DNA from: Oscillospiraceae bacterium Zagget12
GTDB taxonomy: Bacteria > Bacillota > Clostridia > UBA1381
DNA length: 64,000 nucleotides
Assembly (NCBI GenBank): GCA_001941225.1
Contig: MSHM01000009.1
Span: 1 to 64,000 of the forward strand
Direction: 5' to 3'
In this document: in pieces, positions 1,990 to 50,806 of the stretch
How the letters are laid out: each line of letters starts with the position of its first letter
Numbering within the stretch: the stretch's first letter is position 1
The notes under the pieces: generated by a model
Database searches by the model: none
Seen by the model: the letters and a program-made list of their open reading frames with translations, nothing else
Told to the model about the DNA's origin: nothing
Position numbers and translations under genes: made by a program

Positions 1990-4900
1990 TTATTCAATAG
2001 ATTCCATTATTTTACGCAGCGCAGCGCCGACTCCGGTACCGCCCTTTGTTTCGTTTATTTCATTGGCAGCGTAAAGCGTTTTGATTCCAAGCTCATTTCC
2101 TCTGTTTCGCTGCATCTCGTTAACTGAATTATCGTACCAAGGCAATTCTATTGTGTCGGCAACCAGGACGGGAACGGAGTTTATTCCGAAACGCTGATTC
2201 AGCTGAGCGAGCTTGTAATAGAAATCCTGCTCAAGCTGCTCTCTTGCCTTACACTCGACAATTAAAGTCTTAAATCCTTTTGTCAGTATGACGTCAAGCT
2301 CATTGGTGATATTGTCCTTGTTCCAGACTATCTCGCAGCTGCTTGCAACATCATCAAAATAGTTCTGTTCAAGCGCCTTGTAATATACATACAATTCCAA
2401 TATGCGTCCCTCATTGGTCATTAACGCCTTGATTTGAGGAGACGAATAGGTAAAGCTGATAAAGGTTTCTCCGTTATATGTATTTTCGGTATAGTTGATA
2501 ATATATTTTTTCTCGTTAATATCCGTAAGCAGCCTTGTAAGACTGTCTGAAAATTCGGAATCGGATATATCTGAGGACAGCGCGCTTTTTTTCAGATTTT
2601 TCACCATTAAGTTATCGAAATAGATATTGGCGCGCTTATTGAACTTTTCCACTCTGATTTTGGACGCGTCATACAAATTATACGGGTTCGATAAAAGCTC
2701 GTCTATTTTTTTATACACTTCGGGAACGGTTTCCAGTGTAACCGCGCAGGTGGTTGAGTTGTGATATGAAACAGTCGGGCTGTCTCCCGTCAAGCGGTTG
2801 CTTATTTTTTGCAGCTCATATAAGATTTTTTCTACAGCGCCGCGGCAGAAGGACGGCACAAAATATGTTTTCTTTTCCGCGGCAGGCAGGTTTGTATCAC
2901 CTTTCGGCAGGTTAATGCTTAAAATCAAGTCATTGGACGCGGCGGCGGCTTTTAAAACCGAGCAAAGCTTTTTCCAAATTTTTTCTTTCTTTTGTTTCGC
3001 CGGATTTGACAATTTATATAATTTCCAAAAATATTTATAATCGAAAGGCATTTCCGGCAATGACGAAATGCTTTCCGCCTCCTGAAACTCGAACATATCG
3101 GAAACCCTCAGATAGTCCTTGCTGTCGGTATATCTTAAAAATTCACATTCGGAATCGGTGTAAAACTTACATTTTATTGAGTCATATGTATAAGAGGGCA
3201 CTATGCCGTAGCACCCGAGACCGCGCATTAATTTTGATGTGCCAGTTCTGTTTCGCTCAATGGCGCTGAAACATTTTTTCTTATTCTTTTGATTTGCCTT
3301 TAAATAGCTTGTAAGCTGCTTGCCGAGATTCTCGTCGCTTTCATATTCGATTATATCGATATTTCCGATTCTGTCGGATATTTTTTTAATATTTTCCTTA
3401 AATTCAAGGTTTACAATCTGCTTTGACACCGATTGCAGGAACAGCAAATTGACCTTAGCCTGCATTTTATGGCTCTTAATGCAATTTAAGGCATAGCGCA
3501 AAGCTCTTTCAAAGCCGTTCCTGTTGTAATACAGCTCGTCGGCGTCGATTACGTATGTAATAATCGAGGGATTTAAAAGCAACGGCGCAGACACATTGGC
3601 GAATAATATGTTATTGTTAAAATCACCCTTTTGCTCCGTTCCGAACGGTATGCACAAACGGATTCCCGTTGAATAGGTTAGGATAAATGGAATACCCAAA
3701 ACCAAATCCCTGTCGTATTTTTTAAAATCAATATATTGCTGACTTTTAAGTATCGGATAAAAGGAATTTTCAATTATTTTCAGCGTTTTATCTATTTCGG
3801 CGGCAAATTCCTCGGGCAAGGATTTCAGCTGATCCTTGAGGGCTTTGTTAAAATAGTCATAAAGATGCGTGCTGCCCTTCATTCCCTCGATTATTTCCTT
3901 TAAGCACAGGACAAACCTGTCAAAAGCTCTTAATGCGTCCTGATAAAATTTAAGGTTATTGCGTGTTGCATTAATCTCCGTCTGTAAAAATGACAGGTTC
4001 TTTGTCCTTTCGGCTCTTTCCTTGAAATGACGGTGGAGATTTACGGACATTCGGTCAAGCTCGTCCAAGGAGGATAATTTTTCATCGGAGGCATTGTCCC
4101 ACAGGGCGAAGTTATTGTTTTTCCACTCCGCCGTATTTAATGTCCATTCACTGTCGCTTAGAACCAAGCATGGGTGAAGTTTATTCTTTTTATCCTTTGT
4201 ATCGGTCAATAGGGTATTAAAATCCGTTAAAGTATCCCAACCCTGACAGATGTAATTTGCTATCCATCTTCTATGCTCGTATTTTGTCAGTGAATTTATA
4301 ACCGACTTCTTGCCGGAACATTCGTTTTTAAAGCGCGAGGTTGCCAATGCGGGATTTGACATATCATCGATTCCGACGCTGTGCAGCTTATACTTTATTG
4401 AAAGCACATTACTAAAGCAGGAATTAAAGTTATAAGGCGAGCTGAATTCGCCTTTAAGCTTTTGTATATCCACATTCAAAGAATTATTCCATAAAAGATG
4501 GCAGTTAAACGCCATTCTTTTCAAATCCTTATAATAATCGGATTCCGCTATCACGTTGTTCACATAAACGGGATATGCTTTGGCAAACTCTCTCGGCTTA
4601 CCGTACCATACAAAACACACCCGACTTTTATTATTAAGCAGCTCATTCCAATGCAGACATTCTTCAGCCACCTCATAATTAAGCTCATCATCGCCCAAAG
4701 CGACAAAAACATAAGAATATTTGGTATTTTCATTATTGCATATTGATTTTTCGACAATAGCTTTATTTCGCGCCTTATTTTCGCGCGTGAATCCCGTGCT
4801 TTGCTCATTGTCCTTTGCGGATACAAATTTCAGGCTGCCGAGGGATTCGGCGGGACTTATATTATCGACCGTGAAGAAACGCGTAAAAGCGGGACGCGAG

Positions 4901-6288
4901 CTTAAATAACGCTCCTTATCCGCCTTGATATTATTCGATATGGCGGTTATTCTTATATTGTAATTTTCAATTTGGGAAATTTCAAAAGCTATGTCGATAA
5001 ATTTTTGAGCGTATGTGCCCATTCCGAGCACAAGCACATCTATATTTCCGTCGCTGTCGCAAGCGTCGTATAGAGGGCGCTCAAAAAGCAGCCTCTGAAT
5101 GGCTCCGACCGCGCCCGAGCTGATTTCTTTATCCAGATATTCCTCAATATCAACAATTCTTATATCCTGACCGAGGTCAGTGATGAAATTTTTCGCCTCG
5201 CTCGGCAAAAGCAGCGCTCGTGCGCGGACAATATCTTTAAGCATAAATGAGCAGGCTTTATATCGTTTATCGGGATTGGACGCCAAAGAATTCTTAAGTA
5301 TTTTCACAAGAATATCGTGCAGCGCGGAATTGGAGTTTTTATCTGAGTATGTTATCAGCTTTGAGTTTGATACCAAATTATCGAGGTCATTATAATATTT
5401 TCTATCATAAATGCCGTCAAAATCGTCCGATATGATAATGGCATTAAACAGCGTCGCGCCGATTGAGTATATATCCGCCGCAAAGCCGCACCTTCCCCTT
5501 GACACCTCCGGAGCCGCAAAGCCGTCTGTTCCCGCGACCGCGACCAAATCACTGTCCAGGGAATAAATGGTATTGGCGTCATACAGGGAGATATTGCTTG
5601 AGTCAATTTCACCGTTCTCATCAATCAGAACCCCGAAATTATCCGGCTTTATATCCATATGTATCAGATTTGCCGTATGCAGCGCGCTTATACATTTGGT
5701 AAGAGTAAATACGGCGTTAAGAATATTGAATAAATGATGCTCCGGCTCTTTTGCTCTGCCGTTAATATCCTTTCTCACATCTTCCAAATATTTATTAAAT
5801 TGCTTGATTTTCTTGTCGTGTCTTGTCCAGACATAAACAGTTGCGGGTTGATTTTCGTTCTGGGTTACTCCCTCGTATAATTCAAACGGAGGTATATAAT
5901 TATTCAAGACCTCGCCGTAGGGCTTGTTTTTTGTTTTCGCCAGAGTGCAGTAAGCCTCCTTAAAGGCGTCTTTGGCTATATTGAAGTTATCAATTACGCA
6001 TTTTAATGTTTCGGCGATAACTAATTGATTTTTGCTGTCTCTTTCAAATGCCGAAAACTGCTTTGTATTGAAAAAATACTGGGGATAAAATTCCTTCAGT
6101 CGTCCGTGAGTTCCGTCACTTTCGCAGCGCGCCTCATAGCATATCGCCGACCCTCCTCCGGAGCCTATAGTCGAAATGACGGAAAAATCCGCACAGCTGC
6201 CTTTAATAGTCTTTCCCGTTTTGATATTTATTTTTCTGAGTGTAATATTGTCGTCCTTCATTAGTGGCTGTCTGCCGTCATTACTCAT
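1990..6288 (-). CDS. Ser/Thr kinase - Rossmann - RyR-like - PD-(D/E)XK nuclease fusion
   Basis: 1432 aa; AAGGAGA lies just before the ATG. Residues ~35-360 are a protein kinase: glycine loop IGSGGGS (41-47), likely K65, catalytic HMDIKPDN (210-217), YDAN in place of the usual DFG (metal-binding D237) and AAPE (258-261). The catalytic residues are kept, so an active kinase is expected. From ~415 a Rossmann-like segment (VLGMGTYAQ) begins, and around 665-712 the motif EHRRW...HPCLVL resembles a RyR-type ligand-binding domain. The ~720-1320 region is not recognised but holds Rossmannoid-looking strands. The C-terminus has NELDVILT...IVECKA (D1332, E1345, K1347), the D-x(n)-ExK signature of PD-(D/E)XK nucleases and close to the Card1/DUF1887 pattern. 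It lies between a PP2C phosphatase and a TPR protein. I infer a phosphorylation-controlled, ligand-sensing effector; domain boundaries are approximate. Confidence 0.85.
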   Translation of the reverse strand: MSNDGRQPLMKDDNITLRKINIKTGKTIKGSCADFSVISTIGSGGGSAICYEARCESDGTHGRLKEFYPQYFFNTKQFSAFERDSKNQLVIAETLKCVIDNFNIAKDAFKEAYCTLAKTKNKPYGEVLNNYIPPFELYEGVTQNENQPATVYVWTRHDKKIKQFNKYLEDVRKDINGRAKEPEHHLFNILNAVFTLTKCISALHTANLIHMDIKPDNFGVLIDENGEIDSSNISLYDANTIYSLDSDLVAVAGTDGFAAPEVSRGRCGFAADIYSIGATLFNAIIISDDFDGIYDRKYYNDLDNLVSNSKLITYSDKNSNSALHDILVKILKNSLASNPDKRYKACSFMLKDIVRARALLLPSEAKNFITDLGQDIRIVDIEEYLDKEISSGAVGAIQRLLFERPLYDACDSDGNIDVLVLGMGTYAQKFIDIAFEISQIENYNIRITAISNNIKADKERYLSSRPAFTRFFTVDNISPAESLGSLKFVSAKDNEQSTGFTRENKARNKAIVEKSICNNENTKYSYVFVALGDDELNYEVAEECLHWNELLNNKSRVCFVWYGKPREFAKAYPVYVNNVIAESDYYKDLKRMAFNCHLLWNNSLNVDIQKLKGEFSSPYNFNSCFSNVLSIKYKLHSVGIDDMSNPALATSRFKNECSGKKSVINSLTKYEHRRWIANYICQGWDTLTDFNTLLTDTKDKKNKLHPCLVLSDSEWTLNTAEWKNNNFALWDNASDEKLSSLDELDRMSVNLHRHFKERAERTKNLSFLQTEINATRNNLKFYQDALRAFDRFVLCLKEIIEGMKGSTHLYDYFNKALKDQLKSLPEEFAAEIDKTLKIIENSFYPILKSQQYIDFKKYDRDLVLGIPFILTYSTGIRLCIPFGTEQKGDFNNNILFANVSAPLLLNPSIITYVIDADELYYNRNGFERALRYALNCIKSHKMQAKVNLLFLQSVSKQIVNLEFKENIKKISDRIGNIDIIEYESDENLGKQLTSYLKANQKNKKKCFSAIERNRTGTSKLMRGLGCYGIVPSYTYDSIKCKFYTDSECEFLRYTDSKDYLRVSDMFEFQEAESISSLPEMPFDYKYFWKLYKLSNPAKQKKEKIWKKLCSVLKAAAASNDLILSINLPKGDTNLPAAEKKTYFVPSFCRGAVEKILYELQKISNRLTGDSPTVSYHNSTTCAVTLETVPEVYKKIDELLSNPYNLYDASKIRVEKFNKRANIYFDNLMVKNLKKSALSSDISDSEFSDSLTRLLTDINEKKYIINYTENTYNGETFISFTYSSPQIKALMTNEGRILELYVYYKALEQNYFDDVASSCEIVWNKDNITNELDVILTKGFKTLIVECKAREQLEQDFYYKLAQLNQRFGINSVPVLVADTIELPWYDNSVNEMQRNRGNELGIKTLYAANEINETKGGTGVGAALRKIMESIE

Positions 6289-8870: not shown

Positions 8871-9073
8871 TAAAATAGTATAATTTGCCGATTTTTATTA
8901 TTCACCTCTTTTCTCTGCCATTAATATATCATAGGATTTTGCTTTTTTGTAAAAGGGGTGTTATTTGACATTATAAATTTAATAAGATATAATATAGAAA
9001 ATTGATAACCCTTTCATAATTTTCGCTTAGGGTGTGATATAATATGATTAAAATAAAAAAGGAGATGTTTGTT

Positions 9074-9361
9074 ATGTATAAACCGACACCGATAGACACA
9101 AAGAATATCGTATTACAGGAGGAATTATTATCATTGACGGAAAAGATTGCCGAGAATGTCCATGATGTGTGGGCGGCGGGCAGAATCGCCGAGGGCTGGA
9201 CATACGGAGATGTAAAGGATGCGGCAAACAAAAAAACACCTTTGCTTATTCCTTATAATGAGCTGCCCGAAAGCGAAAAGGAGTACGACAGGAATACCGC
9301 TTTGGAAACCTTAAAATTAATTGTAAAATTAGGATATGAAATAACGCCTGCAAAAGGATAA
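9074..9361 (+). CDS. stand-alone RyR-domain protein
   Basis: 95 aa from the ATG at 9074, chosen because AGGAG lies 9 nt upstream; two earlier in-frame ATGs overlap that site. Nearly the whole chain matches the RyR domain: YKPTPIDT at the start, then ENVHDVWAAGRIAEGWTYG, TPLLIPYNELP, KEYDRNTALETL and GYEITP. In bacteria this domain occurs alone or fused to conflict-system proteins and is thought to bind a small ligand (family knowledge). It is divergent from the kinase operon, whose large protein carries its own RyR-like segment, which links the two by theme. It is followed by a strong terminator, so it is a single-gene unit. Confidence 0.92.
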   Translation: MYKPTPIDTKNIVLQEELLSLTEKIAENVHDVWAAGRIAEGWTYGDVKDAANKKTPLLIPYNELPESEKEYDRNTALETLKLIVKLGYEITPAKG

Positions 9362-9536: not shown

Positions 9537-9923
9537 ATGATGAAAATAATGGTTAATAAGAAGTGCAAGCAATACAATAAGGCTGATAAGGCTACGAAGA
9601 AATCGATACAGGCGAATATTAGAAGGCTGTCGGAAAAGCTTTTTCTGGCTGACAAGGACGTAAACAACATATATAACAACGACAGTATTATATATGATCG
9701 GATAAATTCCGAAATTTTCGTTTACAAATGTCACGGCATCAATAATACTCAACTCAGGATTGTTTACGGTATGAAAAGGGTTGATAAGGATATTGTAATA
9801 TATCTGATTGATTTTGTAAATAAAAAGAGCAACGATAAGGCATATGTAAACTCTTTAAATATGAAATTTAAAAATATAAGTATTGCCGACTTGTCGTTTT
9901 GCGATATAGACGGCAGGGAATAA
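9537..9923 (+). CDS. small basic protein with RelE/HigB-like C-terminus
   Basis: 128 aa; CAAGGAGA precedes two adjacent ATG codons. Lysine-rich N-terminal half (KKCKQYNKADKATKK), then a segment IFVYKCHGINNTQLRIVYGM and VIYLIDFVNKKSND whose strand pattern, with 'lRivyg' and 'Kks.d' positions, looks like the RelE/ParE-type toxin fold. No antitoxin-like gene is adjacent, so a free-standing toxin is doubtful; an accessory role in the ATPase locus that follows 29 nt downstream is as likely. The family call is tentative. Confidence 0.6.
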   Translation: MMKIMVNKKCKQYNKADKATKKSIQANIRRLSEKLFLADKDVNNIYNNDSIIYDRINSEIFVYKCHGINNTQLRIVYGMKRVDKDIVIYLIDFVNKKSNDKAYVNSLNMKFKNISIADLSFCDIDGRE

Positions 9924-9952
9924 TATACAATTTAAAAAAGGAGGATATACCA

Positions 9953-10793
9953 ATGAGCTGTTACAGAGAGATAATGAGCAACAAAAACCTACCCTCGCAA
10001 TTCAAGCAATATGTATCCGTATGCGACTTGATGAAAAGCAAAAGCGTTCATCAAGGAATGTCTATGGAGCAAATTGTACCCGACTTGCTTTTGTTTTCGG
10101 AGCGTAAAGCGGAATATATTATCAATTCTTTTTGTCAGTATCTGACTGAGGAGGGATTTGATTTTATAGGCGAGAATCAAATTCTTAAGATTAAACTTCC
10201 GAAAATAAACGCTGAGAATAATACAAATATTTACAATAGAATTAACGATATGTTTATTCTTTCAAACAGTTTCAGAGGGGCGTTTAAAGGAATAGTTTGC
10301 ATTTATATCGACAACACAAACAATTTTAATTACGCTTTTACAGATGCGATGCAGTATATTAAAAGCAAGAGTGAGGGCTGCCTCAGGGTTATTGTTGTAA
10401 ACGATATGAAAGAGTATAAAAGAAGAGAGCTGGAAAAGGCTTTGTCTATGGCGTCATATAGGATATACACGGTTAAAAGCGACAGCCTATCGGCGGAAAA
10501 GGCGTGTATTTTCCTCGGCGTAAAGCTTGAAAAATACGGATTCAACCTCGATTCAAGCGCAAAAAATGCTCTTGGCATAATGGTAAATCAGCTTATAGAT
10601 TCTCACAAGCTGAAGAGCTTGTATGACGTGGACGAATATTTGAGCAATGACATTTTGTTCTTCCTGCTCGGAAATTCCGTAAATACCACAGTCACGGAGG
10701 ATATGATTAATCATTATTTTCAGCAGTGCATACTCTACGGAAAAAAAAGAAGAAACTCATCACATCGGTTTTATAGGTACAAGGGAGGAATAA
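9953..10793 (+). CDS. AAA-lid-like protein before the VirD4-like ATPase (frame disturbed at 3' end)
   Basis: Starts at ATG 9953 behind AAGGAGGAT. As written the frame runs on without stop into the next gene (to 10993), but an A8 run at 10741-10748 probably carries one base too many: with seven A's the gene ends ...GTREE at a TAA (10791-10793) inside the next gene's AAGGGAGGAA ribosome site, giving a 279-aa protein and a normal operon junction. The sequence has a Rossmann-like stretch (GIVCIYIDNTNNF, CLRVIVVNDM) and a C-terminal part (FNLDSSAKNALGIMV, TVTEDMINHYF) like an AAA+ lid, but no Walker A is seen. Function not recognised. Confidence 0.6.
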
Positions 10794-10795
10794 AT

Positions 10796-12357
10796 ATGTT
10801 TGAACAATTCGGAGACAGATTCGCCGCGGCGGAGGAAGTAAAGCAAGCGGGCGTTAAGGTAAACCTTAATGATGAAATATCGGCGGCGGGACTGCCGCTG
10901 ATGAGCGACGCGGAAAATGTTTGGGTGGACAACTCGGACAGCCATAGCCTTATTATCGGCGGCAGCGGAAGTAAAAAAAAAACAGACTGCTGATTTTCCT
11001 GACGATATATTTGCTTGCGAAAAACGGCGAAAATATATGCGCGTATGATCCCAAAGGGGAGAATTTGGCACGCACCGGCGCGTATTTAAAAGAACTCGGC
11101 TATTATATTATAACTCTTGATTTCCGCAATGTAGGCAAAAGGGGAGATTTCTGGAATCCTTTATGGCTTGCGTATAAGAAGTATAAAAGCGGAGATGTTG
11201 ACAAAGCTCAGGAAATGTTCACGGATTTTATTAATGTACTTGCCGAGCCGCAGCGTAAAAACACAAAAGACATCTTTTGGCCCGAAAGCGCCGCGTCCTT
11301 GGCGGCGGGCATTATCCTGTTATTGGCGGAGTGCGCCAAACCGGACGAAATGAATATAGCGAGCTTTGCGAGATTATGCTGCCAGGATAATATGGACAGA
11401 CTGGAATATTTGACAGACCAAATCCCCGAGGACAGCGTTGCGGGTATGAATTTAAAGGGAATAAAAACCTCTCCCGAAAAAACAAAGCAGTCAATATACA
11501 TATCCTTGTTCAGTATGATTTCAATATTTTTAAATCAGCAGAATCTCGTAAACGCGTTATCGGATTCGACGTTTGATATGGAGGATATTCCAAAGAGAAA
11601 AACGGCAGTGTATATAATAACGCCGGACGAGCGTACAACATATAATTTTGCGGTGTCGCTTTTTGTCAAACAGTTATATGATATTTTGATTTCCGCCGCT
11701 CAGGAGAGCCCATCGCTGCAGCTTGAAAGACGTATGAATTTCATTCTCGATGAATTCTGCAATATTCCCAAAATCAATGATTTTCCGACAATGATAAGCG
11801 CAGCGAGAAGTAGAAACATCAGATTTTTCCTTGTTACGCAGGGCTTAAGGCAGTTATATTCAAAGTACGGCGAGGAGGAATCGCAGACGATTATAGGTAA
11901 TTGCTCGAATCTTGTATACCTTTACAGCAGAAAACTTCCGCTGTTAAAAATGATAAGCGAATTATGCGGCGAGCGATATTTGTCGGACGGACGCACACGC
12001 CCGCTTATGACCACCTCGCAGCTCCAGCGACTGGACAAGCAAAAAGGCGAGGTCCTCATATTTTCCGGCAGATTGTATCCTTACGTCACACAGCTGCCGG
12101 ATATTGACGAATATGAGATGTTTAAAAATTATCCCGAGATGAAATCGCCGTCCTCTCAGGCAAAAGAGGCTAAGATACTATCCTTGAAAAAGCTTATTGA
12201 AGAAATAGAATGTGGTATACGACCGGTGCCGTTTACAAAACAGGAGGAATCATATGTTGATAAAATTAAATCGAAAAGCGGAAACAGTAAAATGTACGAC
12301 AATCTCCAAGACGAGCTCGAAAGAAGATTTGACGAATTATTTGGCGGCGATTGCTGA
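10796..12357 (+). pseudogene. VirD4/TraG-type coupling-protein ATPase, frameshifted in the P-loop
   Basis: ATG at 10796 follows AAGGGAGGAATAA. The first part (MFEQFGDRFAAAE...SLIIGGSGS) reaches the Walker A loop and is thrown out of frame at an A10 run (10973-10982); the rest continues in the next frame as LLIFLTIYLLAKNGENICAYDPKGE, with Walker B FILDEFCNIPKI, sensor VTQGLRQL, TIIGNCSN and C-terminal RRFDELFGG, all typical of soluble TraG/VirD4 (TraD_C/AAA_10) ATPases. No transmembrane N-terminus, relaxase or type IV secretion gene is nearby, so it is an orphan. Even with the frame restored the loop reads GGSGSKK(K)N, missing the usual GKT. Could be sequencing error, decay, or slippage; homology is certain, intactness is not. 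Confidence 0.85.
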
Positions 12358-13756
12358 TAAGATTACGTTTGATATATATTATATAAAGCTCTGCAATACG
12401 GACGAGCCTGTAATAAGGACAAAGACCTATTTGCTTAATCAGCCGTTTGGCAAAATTATAAATTTGACATATATAAGCATCGCCGATATGCGAGATCTGC
12501 CGTTTAAATTAAAAAATCAATATCTTTCACACCTCAACCAAGATACCACATACATTATTTATGATATTGCTTTATGTGAAAGCGGCGGCGAAGAAAGAAC
12601 GCATTTCAAAACCACGGACTTTCTGCTGGGCGACACCAAGAGGATAAAGGTGACGGAGGAATTTTTCGGAGAGCATATTTTCTTTGTGGTAAACAGGGAG
12701 GTAAAGCAATACGTCAAAACTCCGTACAACGGACGAGTGCAGAATTATATTCGTGAGGTAAACAGCCGTTACAGATACCGCCGTATCTGGAGGGTGGTTG
12801 CCGCGTATATGGAATATCGGCATAGTCTGCTGTTCGCCGATTGCGAAAGCCTGACAAATAAGGATAAGCGCAAGGTATTAATAGGCGCCTTGTGCGGCGA
12901 TGGGCAGGCGCAGTATGAGTATGGACGTCAATTTGAAACCGCGAATAATATTTTATATTTTTTATGGATGAAAGAGGCTATGAAAAACGGCTGCAAAAAG
13001 GCTTATTATATGAATTGCAGAACCATAACACACTCGGATTTTGACGTGCGTACAATAAACAGATATTATGAGGAAATGCTTGAATACGGATTTCCCGATG
13101 CCGCGCGAAAGTTGTATGAATATGAAATCAAAAAAGAGAATCCAAACGCGGAGAAAATCAAAGAATACACGGAAAAGGGATTCGCCGTCGGAGGACTTAT
13201 GGATTGTTACAGATACGCAATGGTACGCTCCTTTATATTGGGAAGATTCGATTCGATTTTTAATCACGAAGAGGCGCTGAAGGGCTTTGAAAAATTTTTT
13301 GAATTGTATGATAAAACAGCCGATTCAAACTACGATAAAAGTCTTTTAAGCTCCGTAATATTCAAGATGTATTATGCGTATGCGTGCGAATTGGATTTCG
13401 GCGGAGAGGACGCGCTTGATTATATGAAATCATTCAAATATTATAAAAAGGCGTTGAAAGACTCCGAAATGCTTGATGAATATATTTTGGATATAGGAAA
13501 GCAATTTTGCGAGGGAAAATATTTCAAGCCGAATATTGAGCACGGCATTAAATTGATTGGTATGCTTGCGGAAAAGAACAGCACCTCGGCGCAGGAGTAT
13601 ATTGCCGCGTTGGGGAATACATTAATGAAAAATCGACGATATTCGGCGGCTGAAAAATGCTATAAAATATGCTGCGGCTTTGACCGCCGATATTGCGATA
13701 AATATATAATAGCTAAGATGTACAGAGAGCTTGAGGAAAGGGGTAATTTAAAATGA
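12254..13756 (+). CDS. Sel1-like repeat protein of the ATPase locus
   Basis: 500 aa from ATG 12254, which has a strong CAGGAGGAAT site; it therefore overlaps the ATPase C-terminus by 104 nt in another frame. The N-terminal ~200 residues (MLIKLNRKAETVK, FDIYYIKLCNTDEP, ERTHFKTTDFLLGDTKR) are not recognised. From about residue 225 helical repeats resembling Sel1/TPR units appear (GDGQAQYEYGRQFE, FPDAARKLYEYE, KSFKYYKKALKD, ENIYS-like spacing), suited to protein-protein contact. It is followed by the HD gene with a 4-nt ATGA overlap. Likely a scaffold or sensor partner of the ATPase; that is inference from context. Confidence 0.7.
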   Translation: MLIKLNRKAETVKCTTISKTSSKEDLTNYLAAIADKITFDIYYIKLCNTDEPVIRTKTYLLNQPFGKIINLTYISIADMRDLPFKLKNQYLSHLNQDTTYIIYDIALCESGGEERTHFKTTDFLLGDTKRIKVTEEFFGEHIFFVVNREVKQYVKTPYNGRVQNYIREVNSRYRYRRIWRVVAAYMEYRHSLLFADCESLTNKDKRKVLIGALCGDGQAQYEYGRQFETANNILYFLWMKEAMKNGCKKAYYMNCRTITHSDFDVRTINRYYEEMLEYGFPDAARKLYEYEIKKENPNAEKIKEYTEKGFAVGGLMDCYRYAMVRSFILGRFDSIFNHEEALKGFEKFFELYDKTADSNYDKSLLSSVIFKMYYAYACELDFGGEDALDYMKSFKYYKKALKDSEMLDEYILDIGKQFCEGKYFKPNIEHGIKLIGMLAEKNSTSAQEYIAALGNTLMKNRRYSAAEKCYKICCGFDRRYCDKYIIAKMYRELEERGNLK

Positions 13757-14337
13757 TAAACAAAGCGATTATGTTTGCGGCGGATAAGGAGAAAAATAAT
13801 TTCGGTAAGTATTCCGGTTATCCTCGTATTATGCACACGATCAGAGTGGCTGACATTATATCTAAAATGACAGATGACGAAAATGTCATTGCCGCGGCAA
13901 TCTTATACAGCATTATGGAGGACTGCCGCATAGGATTAGATGAGGTGAAGGAGGAATTTGGCGATAGAATAACAAATTTAGTCGTTTTTGAGGACTTTTC
14001 AAAGGTATGGTCGGAACGTAAAGATGATGTGATTGATTTTTTATGCAATGATGCGAATGAGGCGCAGAAAAAAATCGTTTTCGCAAACGAGTTTGATAAT
14101 ATCAGAGAATTATATAAGAATTACGATAAAATCGGAGAGCAGATATGGGAAAGGTATGTTCCTAAAAATCAAGCGGAGAAATGTTATTTGGGTTTTATTG
14201 CCGCGTTTTCGGGATTGGAGGAATATGATGAGTATCATAAGTATGAGCAGCTTGTCTATGATGTGTTTGAAGAGGACTCGTTGTGGAAAAGAGTGAAGAG
14301 GTTTTTTGATGAAATCGAAGAGTCCTGGGAAATATAA
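13753..14337 (+). CDS. RelA/SpoT-type HD-domain protein with degenerate active site
   Basis: 194 aa, overlapping the Sel1 gene by 4 nt (ATGA). The layout matches small Clostridial HD hydrolases related to the (p)ppGpp hydrolase domain: INKAIMFAADKE, SGYPRIMHTIRVA, ENVIAAAILYSIMEDC, EFGDRITNLV, SERKDDVIDFL, NIRELYKNYDKIGEQIWERY. In those enzymes the metal-binding HD pair sits in 'LLHDxxED', but here it is LYSIMED, and 'aDKlsN' has become ANEFDN. The first histidine (MHT) remains. The loss of the HD pair suggests no hydrolysis and perhaps a binding or regulatory role. Terminal gene of the locus. Confidence 0.82.
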   Translation: MINKAIMFAADKEKNNFGKYSGYPRIMHTIRVADIISKMTDDENVIAAAILYSIMEDCRIGLDEVKEEFGDRITNLVVFEDFSKVWSERKDDVIDFLCNDANEAQKKIVFANEFDNIRELYKNYDKIGEQIWERYVPKNQAEKCYLGFIAAFSGLEEYDEYHKYEQLVYDVFEEDSLWKRVKRFFDEIEESWEI

Positions 14338-14520: not shown

Positions 14521-14921
14521 GTATATACAATTATGAGGGAAATGTCAAATATTTCGCGAAAGAAAATTCCGAAAACTACGGTCGGAACAACAAGCTTTAT
14601 GTTAGCGTCACATTAGGCAAAATAAAATCAGAAGATACGGTCGTCGCGCAGTCCGCCGACCAAATGAATGGGCAGCAGAGTAGTGCTCGCGTATCTTCTG
14701 ATACTGTAAGTATACCAGAACTATTAAAGAAAGTCAACCCCGAATACGGAACCTTTTTCAAATATATTCCACCGGAGCTGCTGAACGATAAACAGAACGC
14801 ATCAAAGTATATTGCGGTTAAGGACGAGGATTGGCGTTTAAAGGCAAATAAGTGCTTTTTGCAATCGTTTTATAGTCAAATTATAGTCAAACCCCAAAAA
14901 AGAAAAAGTTTCAAGAAAAAC
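14478..14921 (+). pseudogene. remnant of an unrecognised gene at the island edge
   Basis: A frame open from 14478 with no plausible early start reads YEGNVKYFAKENSENYG, LYVSVTLGKIKSEDTV, VSIPELLKKVNPEYGTFF and IPPELLNDKQ, with natural-looking composition, then degenerates into KPQKRKSFKKNKN and runs antisense across the tRNA terminator and tRNA. An internal ATG at 14664 has no ribosome binding site. I read it as the 3' part of a decayed gene, left next to tRNA-Lys, a common insertion boundary. The family is not recognised. Confidence 0.5.
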
Positions 14922-14957
14922 AAAAACGGCTCAAACCCAGTGTTTAAGCCGTTTTTT
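14922..14957 (-). terminator. terminator of tRNA-Lys
   Basis: ACGGCT-C-AAAC pairs with GTTT-A-AGCCGT around a CCAGT loop, with A-rich and T-rich flanks on both sides, so it works in either direction; on the minus strand it directly follows the tRNA 3' end. Confidence 0.85.
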
Positions 14958-14959
14958 GG

Positions 14960-15035
14960 TGGTACGCCATCGGGGGCTCGAACCCCGGACACCCTGATTA
15001 AGAGTCAGGCGCTCTACCAACTGAGCTAATAGCGC
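14960..15035 (-). tRNA. tRNA-Lys(CTT)
   Basis: Minus strand, 76 nt with encoded CCA. It begins GCGCTATTAGCTCAG (D-arm TTAGCTCAGTTGGTAGAGC), has the anticodon stem CCTGA/TCAGG around loop CTCTTAA (anticodon CTT, lysine) and the T-arm GGGGTTCGAGCCCC. The acceptor stem has two G-U pairs but is otherwise complete. It lies at the boundary between the accessory island and core genes. Confidence 0.97.
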
Positions 15036-49478: not shown

Positions 49479-50806
49479 ATGACGATACAGCTATCAGAGC
49501 ATTTTACATATAAAAAACTGCTGCGATTCACCTTGCCGTCAATTATAATGATGATATTCACATCGATTTACGGCATTGTGGACGGATTTTTTGTTTCAAA
49601 TTTTGTCGGAAAAACATCGTTTACCGCGGTCAATTTTATTATGCCGTTTTTAATGATACTCGGTGCCGTGGGATTTATGTTCGGCGCGGGCGGAAACGCG
49701 CTTATCGCCAAAACAATGGGCGAGGGCAGGACGGAAAAGGCGCGCAGGCTGTTCTCACTGTTTGTGTATGTTTCGGTGATTTACGGAATTATTATCGCCG
49801 CGCTCGGAATAATATTTATCCGTTCGGTTGCCGCCGCGCTCGGCGCGGAGGGTGAAATGCTCGACAACTGCGTGCTTTACGGACGTATTATATTGACGGC
49901 GCTGCCCGCGTATATGCTGCAATTTGAGTTTCAGAGCTTTTTGTCGCGGCGGAAAAACCGCAGCTCGGTCTTGCGGTGACGGTTGCCGCGGGCGTTACAA
50001 ATATGGTATTGGACGCTCTTTTGGTGGCGGTGTTCCCGTTCGGACTTAAGGGAGCGGCTGCCGCGACAGCGCTCAGCCAGTGCGTCGGCGGTATCGTCCC
50101 GCTTATATATTTCTGCCGTCCCAATTCAAGCACACTGCGCCTTACCCGCACAAAATTTGACGGCAAATCTCTGCTTAAAGCCTGCGCGAACGGTTCGTCG
50201 GAGCTTATGTCAAATATATCTATGTCAATCGTAGGTATGCTTTATAATGTGCGTCTGATTAGATATGCCGGTGAGGACGGCGTTGCCGCTTACGGAGTAT
50301 TGATGTATGTAAATATGATATTCATCGCGGCATTTATAGGCTATGCCGTCGGAACCGCGCCCGTTATAAGCTATCATTACGGCGCGGAAAATCACGGCGA
50401 GCTGAAAAGCCTGCTTAGAAAAAGCCTTGTTATTATAGGAATATTTTCGGTTTTGATGTTTGCGGCGGCGCAGCTCCTGTCAAAGCCGCTGTCAATGATA
50501 TTTGTAAGCTATGACGAGAGCCTGCTCAATTTGACGCTTAGAGGATTTGCAATTTACTCATTCTCGTTCCTGTTCGCGGGAATAGCCATTTACGGCTCAT
50601 CATTCTTCACCGCGCTCAACAACGGATTGGTGTCGGCGGCGATTTCGTTCCTCAGGACATTGCTTTTCCAGGTCGCGGCGGTCTTGGTTTTTCCGCTCAT
50701 TTGGGGAGTTGACGGAATTTGGCTGTCCATTGTAGCCGCGGAGCTTATGGCGGCGGTCACAACAACTGTATTTTGGATTGCACTGAGGAAAAAATATAAA
50801 TATTAA
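49479..50806 (+). pseudogene. MATE-family efflux transporter, split by a one-base frameshift
   Basis: Two frames together give one MATE protein. The first (166 aa, MTIQLSEHFTYKKLLRFTLPSIIMMI...) ends SFLSRRKNRSSVLR; one additional T in the T5 run at 49938-49942 would instead read SFFVAAEKPQLGLAVTVAAGVTNMVLDALLVAVFPFGL and continue to 50806. MatE motifs include GIVDGFFVSNFVG, FGAGGNALIAKTMGEG and, later, VGTAPVISYHYGAEN, with 12 membrane helices expected over both parts. If real, the gene is inactive; a homopolymer sequencing error is as likely. Substrate unknown. Confidence 0.88.

What the first reader, a model, noticed from the sequence alone, without database searches (positions are those of the whole stretch)
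9537..14337. Orphan VirD4/TraG ATPase locus with Sel1 and inactive HD proteins
A coupling-type ATPase without relaxase or secretion genes lies in an operon with an AAA-lid-like protein, Sel1 repeats, a RelE-like protein and an HD protein. ATPases of this superfamily (HerA, TraG-like) have been adopted in defence; this could be a second module beside the kinase system.
Basis: partly seen in the sequence, partly recalled or inferred. Interest (0 to 1): 0.65.

Follow-up and report, generated by a model that had tools for sequence, protein, structure and literature searches.

The report
Conjugation-type motor tied to a protease
The window carries a cut-loose relative of the motor that pumps DNA during bacterial mating; in related gut bacteria the same motor, always beside a dead AAA+ partner, often sits next to a ClpP protease gene and never next to the mating genes we tested, which points to a possible new kind of protein-destroying machine in stress- or defence-type gene clusters.

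Summary
The locus is real, but the VirD4/TraG gene is not intact: the pseudo-AAA gene and the ATPase gene each carry a frame break at an A-run (A8 at 10741, A10 at 10973), where relatives read through. Homologues (22 loci including the window) are soluble VirD4-type ATPases without N-terminal membrane helices, mostly with an odd P-loop (GxxGSKK[STN]). None of 17 conjugation seed proteins matches any of the 22 loci, while 7 of 7 conjugative controls match; so this is not a decayed conjugative element. In all 18 loci of two subtypes the ATPase lies beside a AAA+-fold protein, degenerate at Walker A. In 9 of those 18 a ClpP peptidase gene lies in the same cluster. The other 9, window included, have no cluster ClpP; their pseudo-AAA ends in an [ILMF]GF tail resembling the ClpX tripeptide that docks on ClpP (1 of 9 in the ClpP loci). 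In a third subtype (4 loci) the ATPase is followed by a DUF4062-STAND protein. Neighbours include TIR, CHAT, kinase, PP2C and RyR genes. Best reading: a coupling-protein-type motor plus pseudo-AAA adaptor that feeds protein to ClpP. The association is strong; the biochemistry is inferred. Whether the window copy works is open.

The parts
9044..9361 (+). RyR-domain protein, 105 aa, just upstream of the run; membership in the unit uncertain
   Evidence: Pfam RyR 6.7e-36; in L179 (G057:C105) a RyR-domain gene lies directly beside a ClpP gene
9537..9923 (+). small protein called RelE-like, 128 aa
   Evidence: marginal PADLOC CARF-RelE match 0.0018; conserved upstream of the pseudo-AAA gene in L037/L038 (55% identity to L038)
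9953..10793 (+). pseudo-AAA gene (AAA+ fold with lid, no Walker A lysine); frame broken at the A8 run; the other frame ends ...HHIGFIGTREE then TAA at 10791, as in L038
   Evidence: 40% identity to L038; AlphaFold of L038 homologue pLDDT 70, pTM 0.56, Foldseek best hit CbbX 1.3e-5; C-terminal reading
10741..10748 (+). A8 run at which the pseudo-AAA frame breaks
10796..12357 (+). VirD4/TraG-type ATPase gene, broken in frame at the A10 run inside the P-loop codons
   Evidence: Pfam T4SS-DNA_transf 2e-37; 68% identity to the intact 521-aa L003/L038 proteins; start ATG at 10796
10973..10982 (+). A10 run; relatives L037/L038 read AGTAAGAAAAACAG here without a break
12254..13756 (+). helical-repeat-like protein ('Sel1'); true start uncertain because it overlaps the ATPase end
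   Evidence: 37% identity to L038 11469-12962 at the same place; no Pfam Sel1 match
13753..14337 (+). SpoT-like HD_4 domain protein with the HD dyad missing
   Evidence: Pfam HD_4 8.9e-11; ILYSIMED read by eye
1990..6288 (-). context: kinase with C-terminal Card1-like PDDEXK nuclease
   Evidence: Pfam Pkinase 5.6e-14, Card1_endonuc 1.2e-7; same architecture beside the ATPase-ClpP cluster in L093
6300..6998 (-). context: PP2C phosphatase
   Evidence: Pfam PP2C_2 2.7e-21

Best explanation
The locus belongs to a so far undescribed family of gene modules of Clostridia in which a soluble, coupling-protein-type (VirD4/TraG) hexameric motor works with a AAA+-fold pseudo-ATPase and the ClpP peptidase. 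Proposed mechanism: a signalling or sensor protein of the neighbourhood (kinase/PP2C, RyR, TIR, CHAT or STAND, depending on the locus) triggers the unit; the motor threads a protein substrate, as coupling proteins do in secretion, but hands it to ClpP instead of a secretion channel. In half of the pseudo-AAA loci ClpP is encoded in the cluster; in the other half, the window's subtype, the pseudo-AAA ends in an [ILMF]GF tail that would dock on the hydrophobic pockets of the housekeeping ClpP, as the ClpX loop does. Shown: the family, loss of the membrane domain, absence of conjugation genes, the neighbouring pseudo-AAA, the neighbouring ClpP in 9 loci, the tail. Inferred: that the three proteins form one machine, that protein (not DNA) is the substrate, that the tail binds ClpP, that the purpose is stress response or defence. 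Whether the window copy itself is active is undecided because of two frame breaks.
For: Pseudo-AAA beside the ATPase in 17 of 17 HMM-tested A/B loci, plus the window by BLAST. 15 of those 17 trained the models, but the A-subtype model finds the B copies in 9 of 9 and the B-subtype model finds the A copies in 7 of 8; hhalign of the two groups gives prob 99.0, E 5.6e-18. ClpP in 9 of these loci, with Ser and His kept in 9 of 9 and Asp in 7 of 9. 0 of 91 comparison loci with other VirD4-type genes has either partner. In 7 of 7 searched genomes of the ClpP subtype the cluster ClpP is a second copy beside a housekeeping ClpP, and the cluster ClpPs group apart from the housekeeping ones (90/93). A further ClpP sits directly beside a VirD4-type gene of another P-loop type in L181. 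Tail [ILMVF]G[FL] in the last 15 residues: 9 of 9 without cluster ClpP, 1 of 9 with; this consensus binds ClpP pockets in Clp ATPases (PMC8745299, passages). Fold of the motor: Z 31.3 to Cag-beta, which handles a protein substrate, and 29.5 to TrwB from residue 90 on. No N-terminal membrane segment. No conjugation seeds in 22 of 22 loci.
Against: No ClpP in the window module, in the other 8 loci of its subtype, or in the 4 STAND-type loci. In the window both core genes are broken in frame. The P-loop of the window lineage reads GSGSKKN, with Asn for Ser/Thr, so ATPase activity is uncertain. Two of 9 cluster ClpPs have Asn for the catalytic Asp. The tail is not proof of ClpP docking: one of three other clostridial AAA_lid_6 proteins also ends in MIGF (L184), and L091 has both ClpP and an MGL tail. 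The fold is also close to DNA pumps (DndH 23.2, HerA 20.7). No complex could be modelled.
Confidence: 0.45

Rival explanations
1. DNA-pumping defence module of the HerA type: the motor translocates on or senses DNA, as in HerA-DUF4297 or HerA-SIR2, and the neighbouring kinase-nuclease, TIR or STAND proteins are the effectors; ClpP only turns components over.
For: Fold within the FtsK-HerA superfamily, Z 18-21 to HerA and HerA defence complexes; defence-type neighbours: TIR, CHAT, STAND, kinase, type I restriction genes read by eye in L137.
Against: The fold is clearly closer to coupling proteins (Z 29.5-31.3) than to HerA; no nuclease or SIR2 gene recurs next to the motor; the recurrent partners are a pseudo-AAA, ClpP and a membrane HExxH protein.
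Confidence: 0.27
2. The window copy is a dead or dying pseudogene cluster; only the relatives are functional.
For: Two frame breaks in the two core genes; the P-loop is hit.
Against: Both breaks lie exactly in A-runs, the only two runs of 8 or more inside genes of this 64-kb window (positions, placement against the ORF lists by eye), which fits sequencing or assembly indels in a metagenome assembly, or slippage; the rest of both genes, and the flanking genes, are open and conserved.
Confidence: 0.25
3. Phase-variable module: the A8 and A10 tracts switch the pseudo-AAA and ATPase on and off by slippage.
For: The longest homopolymer of the window sits in the P-loop codons, where relatives have a broken tract.
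Against: A/T runs of 8 or more are no more frequent than chance here (2 seen, 1.4 expected in the 4.8-kb region); no second assembly of this species was available to show a different tract length.
Confidence: 0.15
4. Scaffold or signalling complex without motor activity: both the pseudo-AAA and the ATPase with KKN P-loop have lost hydrolysis and serve as regulators.
For: Unusual P-loop: Gly before the Lys replaced in most members, Thr/Ser replaced by Asn in the window lineage.
Against: The Lys is kept in all members read and Ser/Thr in most; Walker B Asp-Glu is kept in nearly all; P-loops of the same superfamily with a replaced Gly (GSYKT, GTMKS) occur in other VirD4-type relatives.
Confidence: 0.12
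5. Relic of a conjugative element.
For: Sequence and fold are those of a coupling protein; a tRNA-Lys lies near the end of the run.
Against: 0 of 22 family loci match any of 17 conjugation seeds, 7 of 7 conjugative controls do; a relaxase shares the cluster's contig in only 1 of 14 genomes (G396, about 26 kb away); the soluble form is shared by the whole family.
Confidence: 0.04

Closest known systems
VirD4/TraG type IV coupling proteins (TrwB, Cag-beta; NCBIfam CD1115 family)
   Same: Sequence family (T4SS-DNA_transf 2e-37), fold including the helical domain (Z 29.5-31.3), Walker B Asp-Glu
   Different: No N-terminal membrane domain, odd P-loop, no relaxase or secretion genes, pseudo-AAA and often ClpP next door; below the curated CD1115 cut-off (231 against 250 bits)
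HerA-DUF4297, HerA-SIR2 and DndH-type defence ATPases
   Same: FtsK-HerA superfamily motor recruited away from its parent function (Z 18-23); conflict-type neighbours
   Different: Partner is a pseudo-AAA and a peptidase rather than a nuclease or NADase; motor closer to coupling proteins
ClpXP and other ClpP-dependent AAA+ proteases
   Same: ClpP peptidase with Ser and His kept; [LIV]-G-[FL]-like tripeptide (PMC8745299, passages)
   Different: The only plausible motor is a VirD4-type ATPase, not a AAA+ unfoldase; the AAA+ partner lacks Walker A; the tripeptide is a C-terminal tail, not an internal loop
CbbX (AAA+ Rubisco activase)
   Same: Best Foldseek match of the pseudo-AAA model (3syl, E 1.3e-5)
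   Different: No P-loop lysine; no Rubisco context
NTP-dependent conflict systems (VMAP/iSTAND ternary systems; eLife 2020, PMC7159879, passages seen)
   Same: Mixtures of STAND, kinase, Sel1 and inactive motor domains; that paper mentions inactive FtsK ATPases
   Different: 'TraG', 'RyR' and 'DUF4062' have 0 occurrences in its main text; 'ClpP' was not among the terms searched in that paper

Membership tests
Conjugative type IV coupling protein | Coupling-protein fold with RecA-like motor and all-helical domain | tested here: met
   AlphaFold of L038 homologue pLDDT 87.8, pTM 0.84; VIA Z 31.3 Cag-beta (rmsd 3.5, 430 aligned), 29.5 TrwB (rmsd 3.4, 390 aligned)
Conjugative type IV coupling protein | N-terminal transmembrane domain | tested here: not met
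   In the 19 A/B/C loci with a readable P-loop it lies within about 115 residues of the start; maximal 19-residue hydropathy under 1.0 wherever that was computed, against 1.4-3.0 in most conjugative VirD4. The automatic P-loop regex misplaced it in L039, L041, L141 and L142, where the position was read by eye. The window gene is broken, so its close kin L037/L038 were used
Conjugative type IV coupling protein | Encoded with relaxase and secretion-channel genes | tested here: not met
   0 of 22 loci with any of 17 seeds; no relaxase in G000
Conjugative type IV coupling protein | Canonical Walker A GxxxxGK[ST] | tested here: not met
   GGSGSKKN in L037/L038 and the same codons in the window
HerA-nuclease or HerA-SIR2 defence system | HerA-type motor closest by fold | tested here: not met
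   HerA Z 20.7 against 31.3 for Cag-beta
HerA-nuclease or HerA-SIR2 defence system | Nuclease, DUF4297 or SIR2 partner in the same operon | tested here: inconclusive
   None among the window genes 9537-14337 by Pfam and PADLOC; a Card1-like nuclease end is in the divergent kinase gene 1990-6288
ClpP-dependent ATP-driven protease | ClpP gene in the module | tested here: not met
   Not in the window or the 8 other loci of its subtype; met in 9 of 9 loci of the sister subtype; G000 has a housekeeping ClpP elsewhere (C5:108338)
ClpP-dependent ATP-driven protease | Ser-His-Asp triad in cluster ClpP | tested here: inconclusive
   Ser and His 9 of 9, Asp 7 of 9 (Asn in L092, L093)
ClpP-dependent ATP-driven protease | (L/I/V)-G-(F/L) docking tripeptide on the ATPase or its partner | tested here: met
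   As a C-terminal tail with a slightly wider first position (I, L, M, F): 9 of 9 pseudo-AAA without cluster ClpP, the window's in the other frame; docking not tested
Active AAA+ ATPase (CbbX type) | Walker A lysine | tested here: not met
   No GK[ST] in any of the A or B pseudo-AAA sequences, read by eye in alignments; L094 reads GNGRTT

The most novel reading that the evidence does not exclude
A new class of ATP-dependent protease in which the motor is not a AAA+ unfoldase but a cytosolic conjugative coupling-protein relative, joined to ClpP directly or through a pseudo-AAA adaptor with a C-terminal IGF-like tail, and wired to immune-type sensors. Coupling proteins would then be true protein unfoldases.
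Probability: 0.4. Interest if true: 0.93.

Novelty: categorically new. Interest (0 to 1): 0.8.

Why it matters
If true, it adds a second motor superfamily to ATP-dependent proteolysis and shows how a DNA/protein pump of conjugation was rewired. It would also make an open question testable: which enzyme unfolds the protein substrate in type IV secretion is stated to be unclear (PMC5826034, passages seen). A soluble coupling-protein relative that feeds ClpP would give a simple in-solution assay for unfolding by such motors. It also flags a family of conflict-type loci in Clostridia that the one defence library searched (PADLOC) does not name: no match for the window's pseudo-AAA or ATPase halves.

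Tried and rejected
Decayed conjugative element: rejected. Presence on plasmids or phages: tblastn of the L038 ATPase gave only distant matches (all under 60% identity; best rows 24-33% in plasmids, 25-29% in phages), nothing like the family; two IMG/VR contigs (L110, L111) carry it but look chromosomal or mobile-element-like. Fusion of the pseudo-AAA into the STAND-type ATPases: the C-terminal extension of L042-L045 does not match it (hhalign prob 0.2). PDB sequence searches with the pseudo-AAA profiles gave no significant match. A tRNA-end repeat as attachment site: none found in the window. L143 (G1030) and L112 (G1002) matched the profile searches but were left out of the 22 because no pseudo-AAA, ClpP or STAND partner was seen; L112 enters the tree as an ungrouped row. 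L046-L049 were found by the same search and are kept as secretion-linked relatives: they lie inside the 99* branch with the family. G1082 (L180) has an extra ClpP without a VirD4-type neighbour. Literature: searches found no description of a VirD4/TraG-ClpP pair; only that library was searched and it lacks most subscription papers and all bioRxiv preprints. The genome-contig scan and genome samples are samples, not censuses.

Caveats on counts: only 32 of 86 comparison loci measured have 1.2 kb or more on both sides, so absence of ClpP beside conjugative VirD4 is under-tested, though larger loci among them are also negative. L037/L038, L039/L041, L141/L142, L111/L139 and L042-L045 are related sets, so independent lineages are fewer than loci. 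L139's ATPase gene is interrupted by a reverse-transcriptase gene. The tail background (17 of 344 ORFs of 150 aa or more) includes pseudo-AAA genes themselves.
Full report
What is in the window. Genes 9537-14337 run in one direction: a small protein (9537-9923), a pseudo-AAA protein (9953-10793), a VirD4/TraG-type ATPase (10796-12357), a helical-repeat-like protein (to 13756) and a SpoT-like HD_4 protein without its HD dyad (13753-14337). A RyR-domain gene (9044-9361) lies upstream; divergent from it are a kinase with a Card1-like nuclease end, a PP2C phosphatase and a 504-aa protein. Pfam supports the ATPase strongly (T4SS-DNA_transf 2e-37) and the HD domain (8.9e-11), but not Sel1 repeats; RelE rests on one marginal match.

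Two frame breaks. The mechanical ORFs 9899-10993 and 11011-12357 are not two proteins: relatives L037/L038 have a separate 276-aa pseudo-AAA and an intact 521-aa ATPase. In the window an A8 run (10741-10748) breaks the first gene just before its tail, and an A10 run (10973-10982) breaks the second inside the P-loop codons, where L037/L038 read AGTAAGAAAAACAG. With one A fewer the first gene ends ETHHIGFIGTREE followed by TAA and, two bases on, the ATG of the ATPase, the arrangement of L038. The window holds six homopolymer runs of 8 or more; by comparison with the ORF lists only these two lie inside genes (by eye). Such runs are not more frequent than chance. A separate gene, a MATE-type transporter (49479-50806), is also split, but at a short run. 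Sequencing error, slippage and real decay cannot be told apart here.

The family. A search of 95 genomes of the order with the intact L003 ATPase gave a gap: members at 2.7e-91 or better (G026, G000, G057), all others at 1.9e-46 or weaker. A scan of genome contigs gave 32 loci, of which L037-L045 belong to the family, L046-L049 are secretion-linked relatives and L050-L068 Bacillaceae relatives. Class, phylum and order samples (391, 398 and 394 genomes) added G345, G420, G396, G233, G1346, G1240, G1182, G1315, G1243 and G1114, all of the same class; L038 is G357, and L042 is taken as G1082, by equal contig lengths. In the phylum sample the window's own genome was the only family member (the other 5 matches had GS/GA-TRSGKSR P-loops). 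Viral-contig scans added L110 and L111. This gives 22 loci: window, L037-L045, L091-L094, L110, L111, L136-L139, L141, L142.

Features of the motor. P-loops are GGSGSKKN, GSTGSKKS, GNTGAKKS, GASGSKK[TS], GSTASKKS, GETGSKKT, GATGSKKT, GSTGSKKT, GASGFKKS and ASSGMKKS; exceptions are L094 (GKSGKGKS), L110 (GGTGSGKS) and L141/L142 (GDSGSGKT). There is no N-terminal membrane segment, unlike most conjugative relatives. The tree (66 rows, SH-aLRT) puts all family members in a 28-row branch (99*) together with the four secretion-linked Bacilli proteins and two ungrouped rows; 15 of the pseudo-AAA-linked members form a branch with support 91, while L094 and L141/L142 fall outside that branch. The family is therefore not shown to be one clade free of secretion-linked relatives. 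The AlphaFold model of L038 (pLDDT 87.8, pTM 0.84) is closest to Cag-beta (Z 31.3) and TrwB (29.5, aligned from TrwB residue 90), then VirB4 (24.1), DndH (23.2) and HerA (20.7).

No conjugation genes. VirB4, VirB6 and PrgI seeds from L046/L049 hit no family locus. A larger set of 17 seeds, relaxase and MobC included, hit 0 of 22 family loci and 7 of 7 conjugative controls; the seeds come from those controls, so this shows absence of that kind of gene, not of every possible secretion gene. A relaxase HMM found 14 hits in 8 of 14 genomes; only G396 has one on the cluster's contig, about 26 kb away.

The pseudo-AAA. Each A/B ATPase gene has a 160-330-aa gene directly beside it. Both subtypes match each other (hhalign prob 99.0, E 5.6e-18). 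The model built on the first subtype detects 9 of 9 of the second, and the reverse model 7 of 8; neither detects anything in 91 comparison loci. The L038 protein is predicted as a AAA+ core plus four-helix lid (pLDDT 70, pTM 0.56), best Foldseek hit CbbX 1.3e-5; VIA gives Z 11.7 to HslU with many AAA+ unfoldases tied within 1. No Walker A lysine is present (by eye).

ClpP. In L091, L092, L093, L110, L111, L137, L138 and L139 a ClpP gene (Pfam or profile E 4e-53 or better) follows the ATPase, mostly abutting or overlapping; in L094 it precedes the pseudo-AAA. Each of 15 genomes searched has a housekeeping ClpP; in the 7 ClpP-subtype genomes the cluster copy is additional. Cluster ClpPs fall together (90/93) with two further non-cluster copies. 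On the ATPase tree ClpP loci are not one group (4 changes, at least 2 forced), so ClpP was gained or lost more than once. In L181 (G1182:C29) another ClpP directly adjoins a VirD4-type gene of a different P-loop type.

The tail. In the 9 loci without cluster ClpP the pseudo-AAA carries IGF, LGF, MGF or FGF within its last 15 residues (the window's in the other frame); among 9 ClpP loci only L091 (MGL) does. Clp ATPases dock on ClpP through (L/I/V)-G-(F/L) loops (PMC8745299, passages). One of three other clostridial AAA_lid_6 proteins has a similar tail (L184), two do not, so the tail may be older than the ClpP link.

Neighbours. DUF4062-STAND directly downstream in 4 of 4 L042-L045; CHAT-TPR with two further upstream genes in L037, L038, L092; TIR in L093, L111; kinase in the window, L040, L093, L094; a membrane protein with an HExxH motif (read by eye) in L040, L091, L092, L111, L137; HSP70 and Sel1 in L041. 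These are conflict-type genes, but no single effector recurs in all.

Conclusion. The association of a soluble coupling-type motor with a pseudo-AAA, and in half of these loci with ClpP, is well supported by independent comparisons; the machine, its substrate and its purpose are inferred. I file it under no known family: for conjugative coupling proteins, three tested features fail; for ClpP proteases, the window's own module lacks ClpP.

Noticed in passing
L181 4289-6462 (G1182:C29): A second, different VirD4-type gene (GPSGAGKT P-loop, 506 aa) directly beside a ClpP gene, with no pseudo-AAA seen.
   Followed up: partly
L179 5844-10800 (G057:C105): ClpP gene beside a RyR-domain gene, a metallophosphatase-like gene, and a 1120-aa protein that reads like a ClpB-type AAA fused to an FtsH-type AAA protease.
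   Followed up: no
L040 11478-12299, L091 4308-5384, L092 2867-3925, L111 12242-13339, L137 7382-8479: A recurrent membrane protein with an HExxH motif near the motor gene, without a significant Pfam match in the two members tested.
   Followed up: partly
L093 180-1745: TIR-like N-terminus joined to a kinase domain (PADLOC kinase models 5.8e-38) near the module.
   Followed up: no
L092 179-2555 and L111 6659-9044: The same three genes (small protein, 192-194-aa protein, CitMHS-type transporter) occur beside the module in two unrelated contigs.
   Followed up: no
window 49479-50806: MATE-type transporter split in two frames at a short T run.
   Followed up: partly
L139 10523-12346: Reverse-transcriptase gene (group II intron type by eye) inserted within the VirD4-type gene.
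   Followed up: no
L110 4359-5009, L043 7447-8145, L179 5111-5809: Metallophosphatase-like genes with similar starts recur near the module or its ClpP.
   Followed up: no
window 14664-15035: ORF running into the tRNA-Lys gene at the right end of the run; no repeat of the tRNA end elsewhere in the window.
   Followed up: partly
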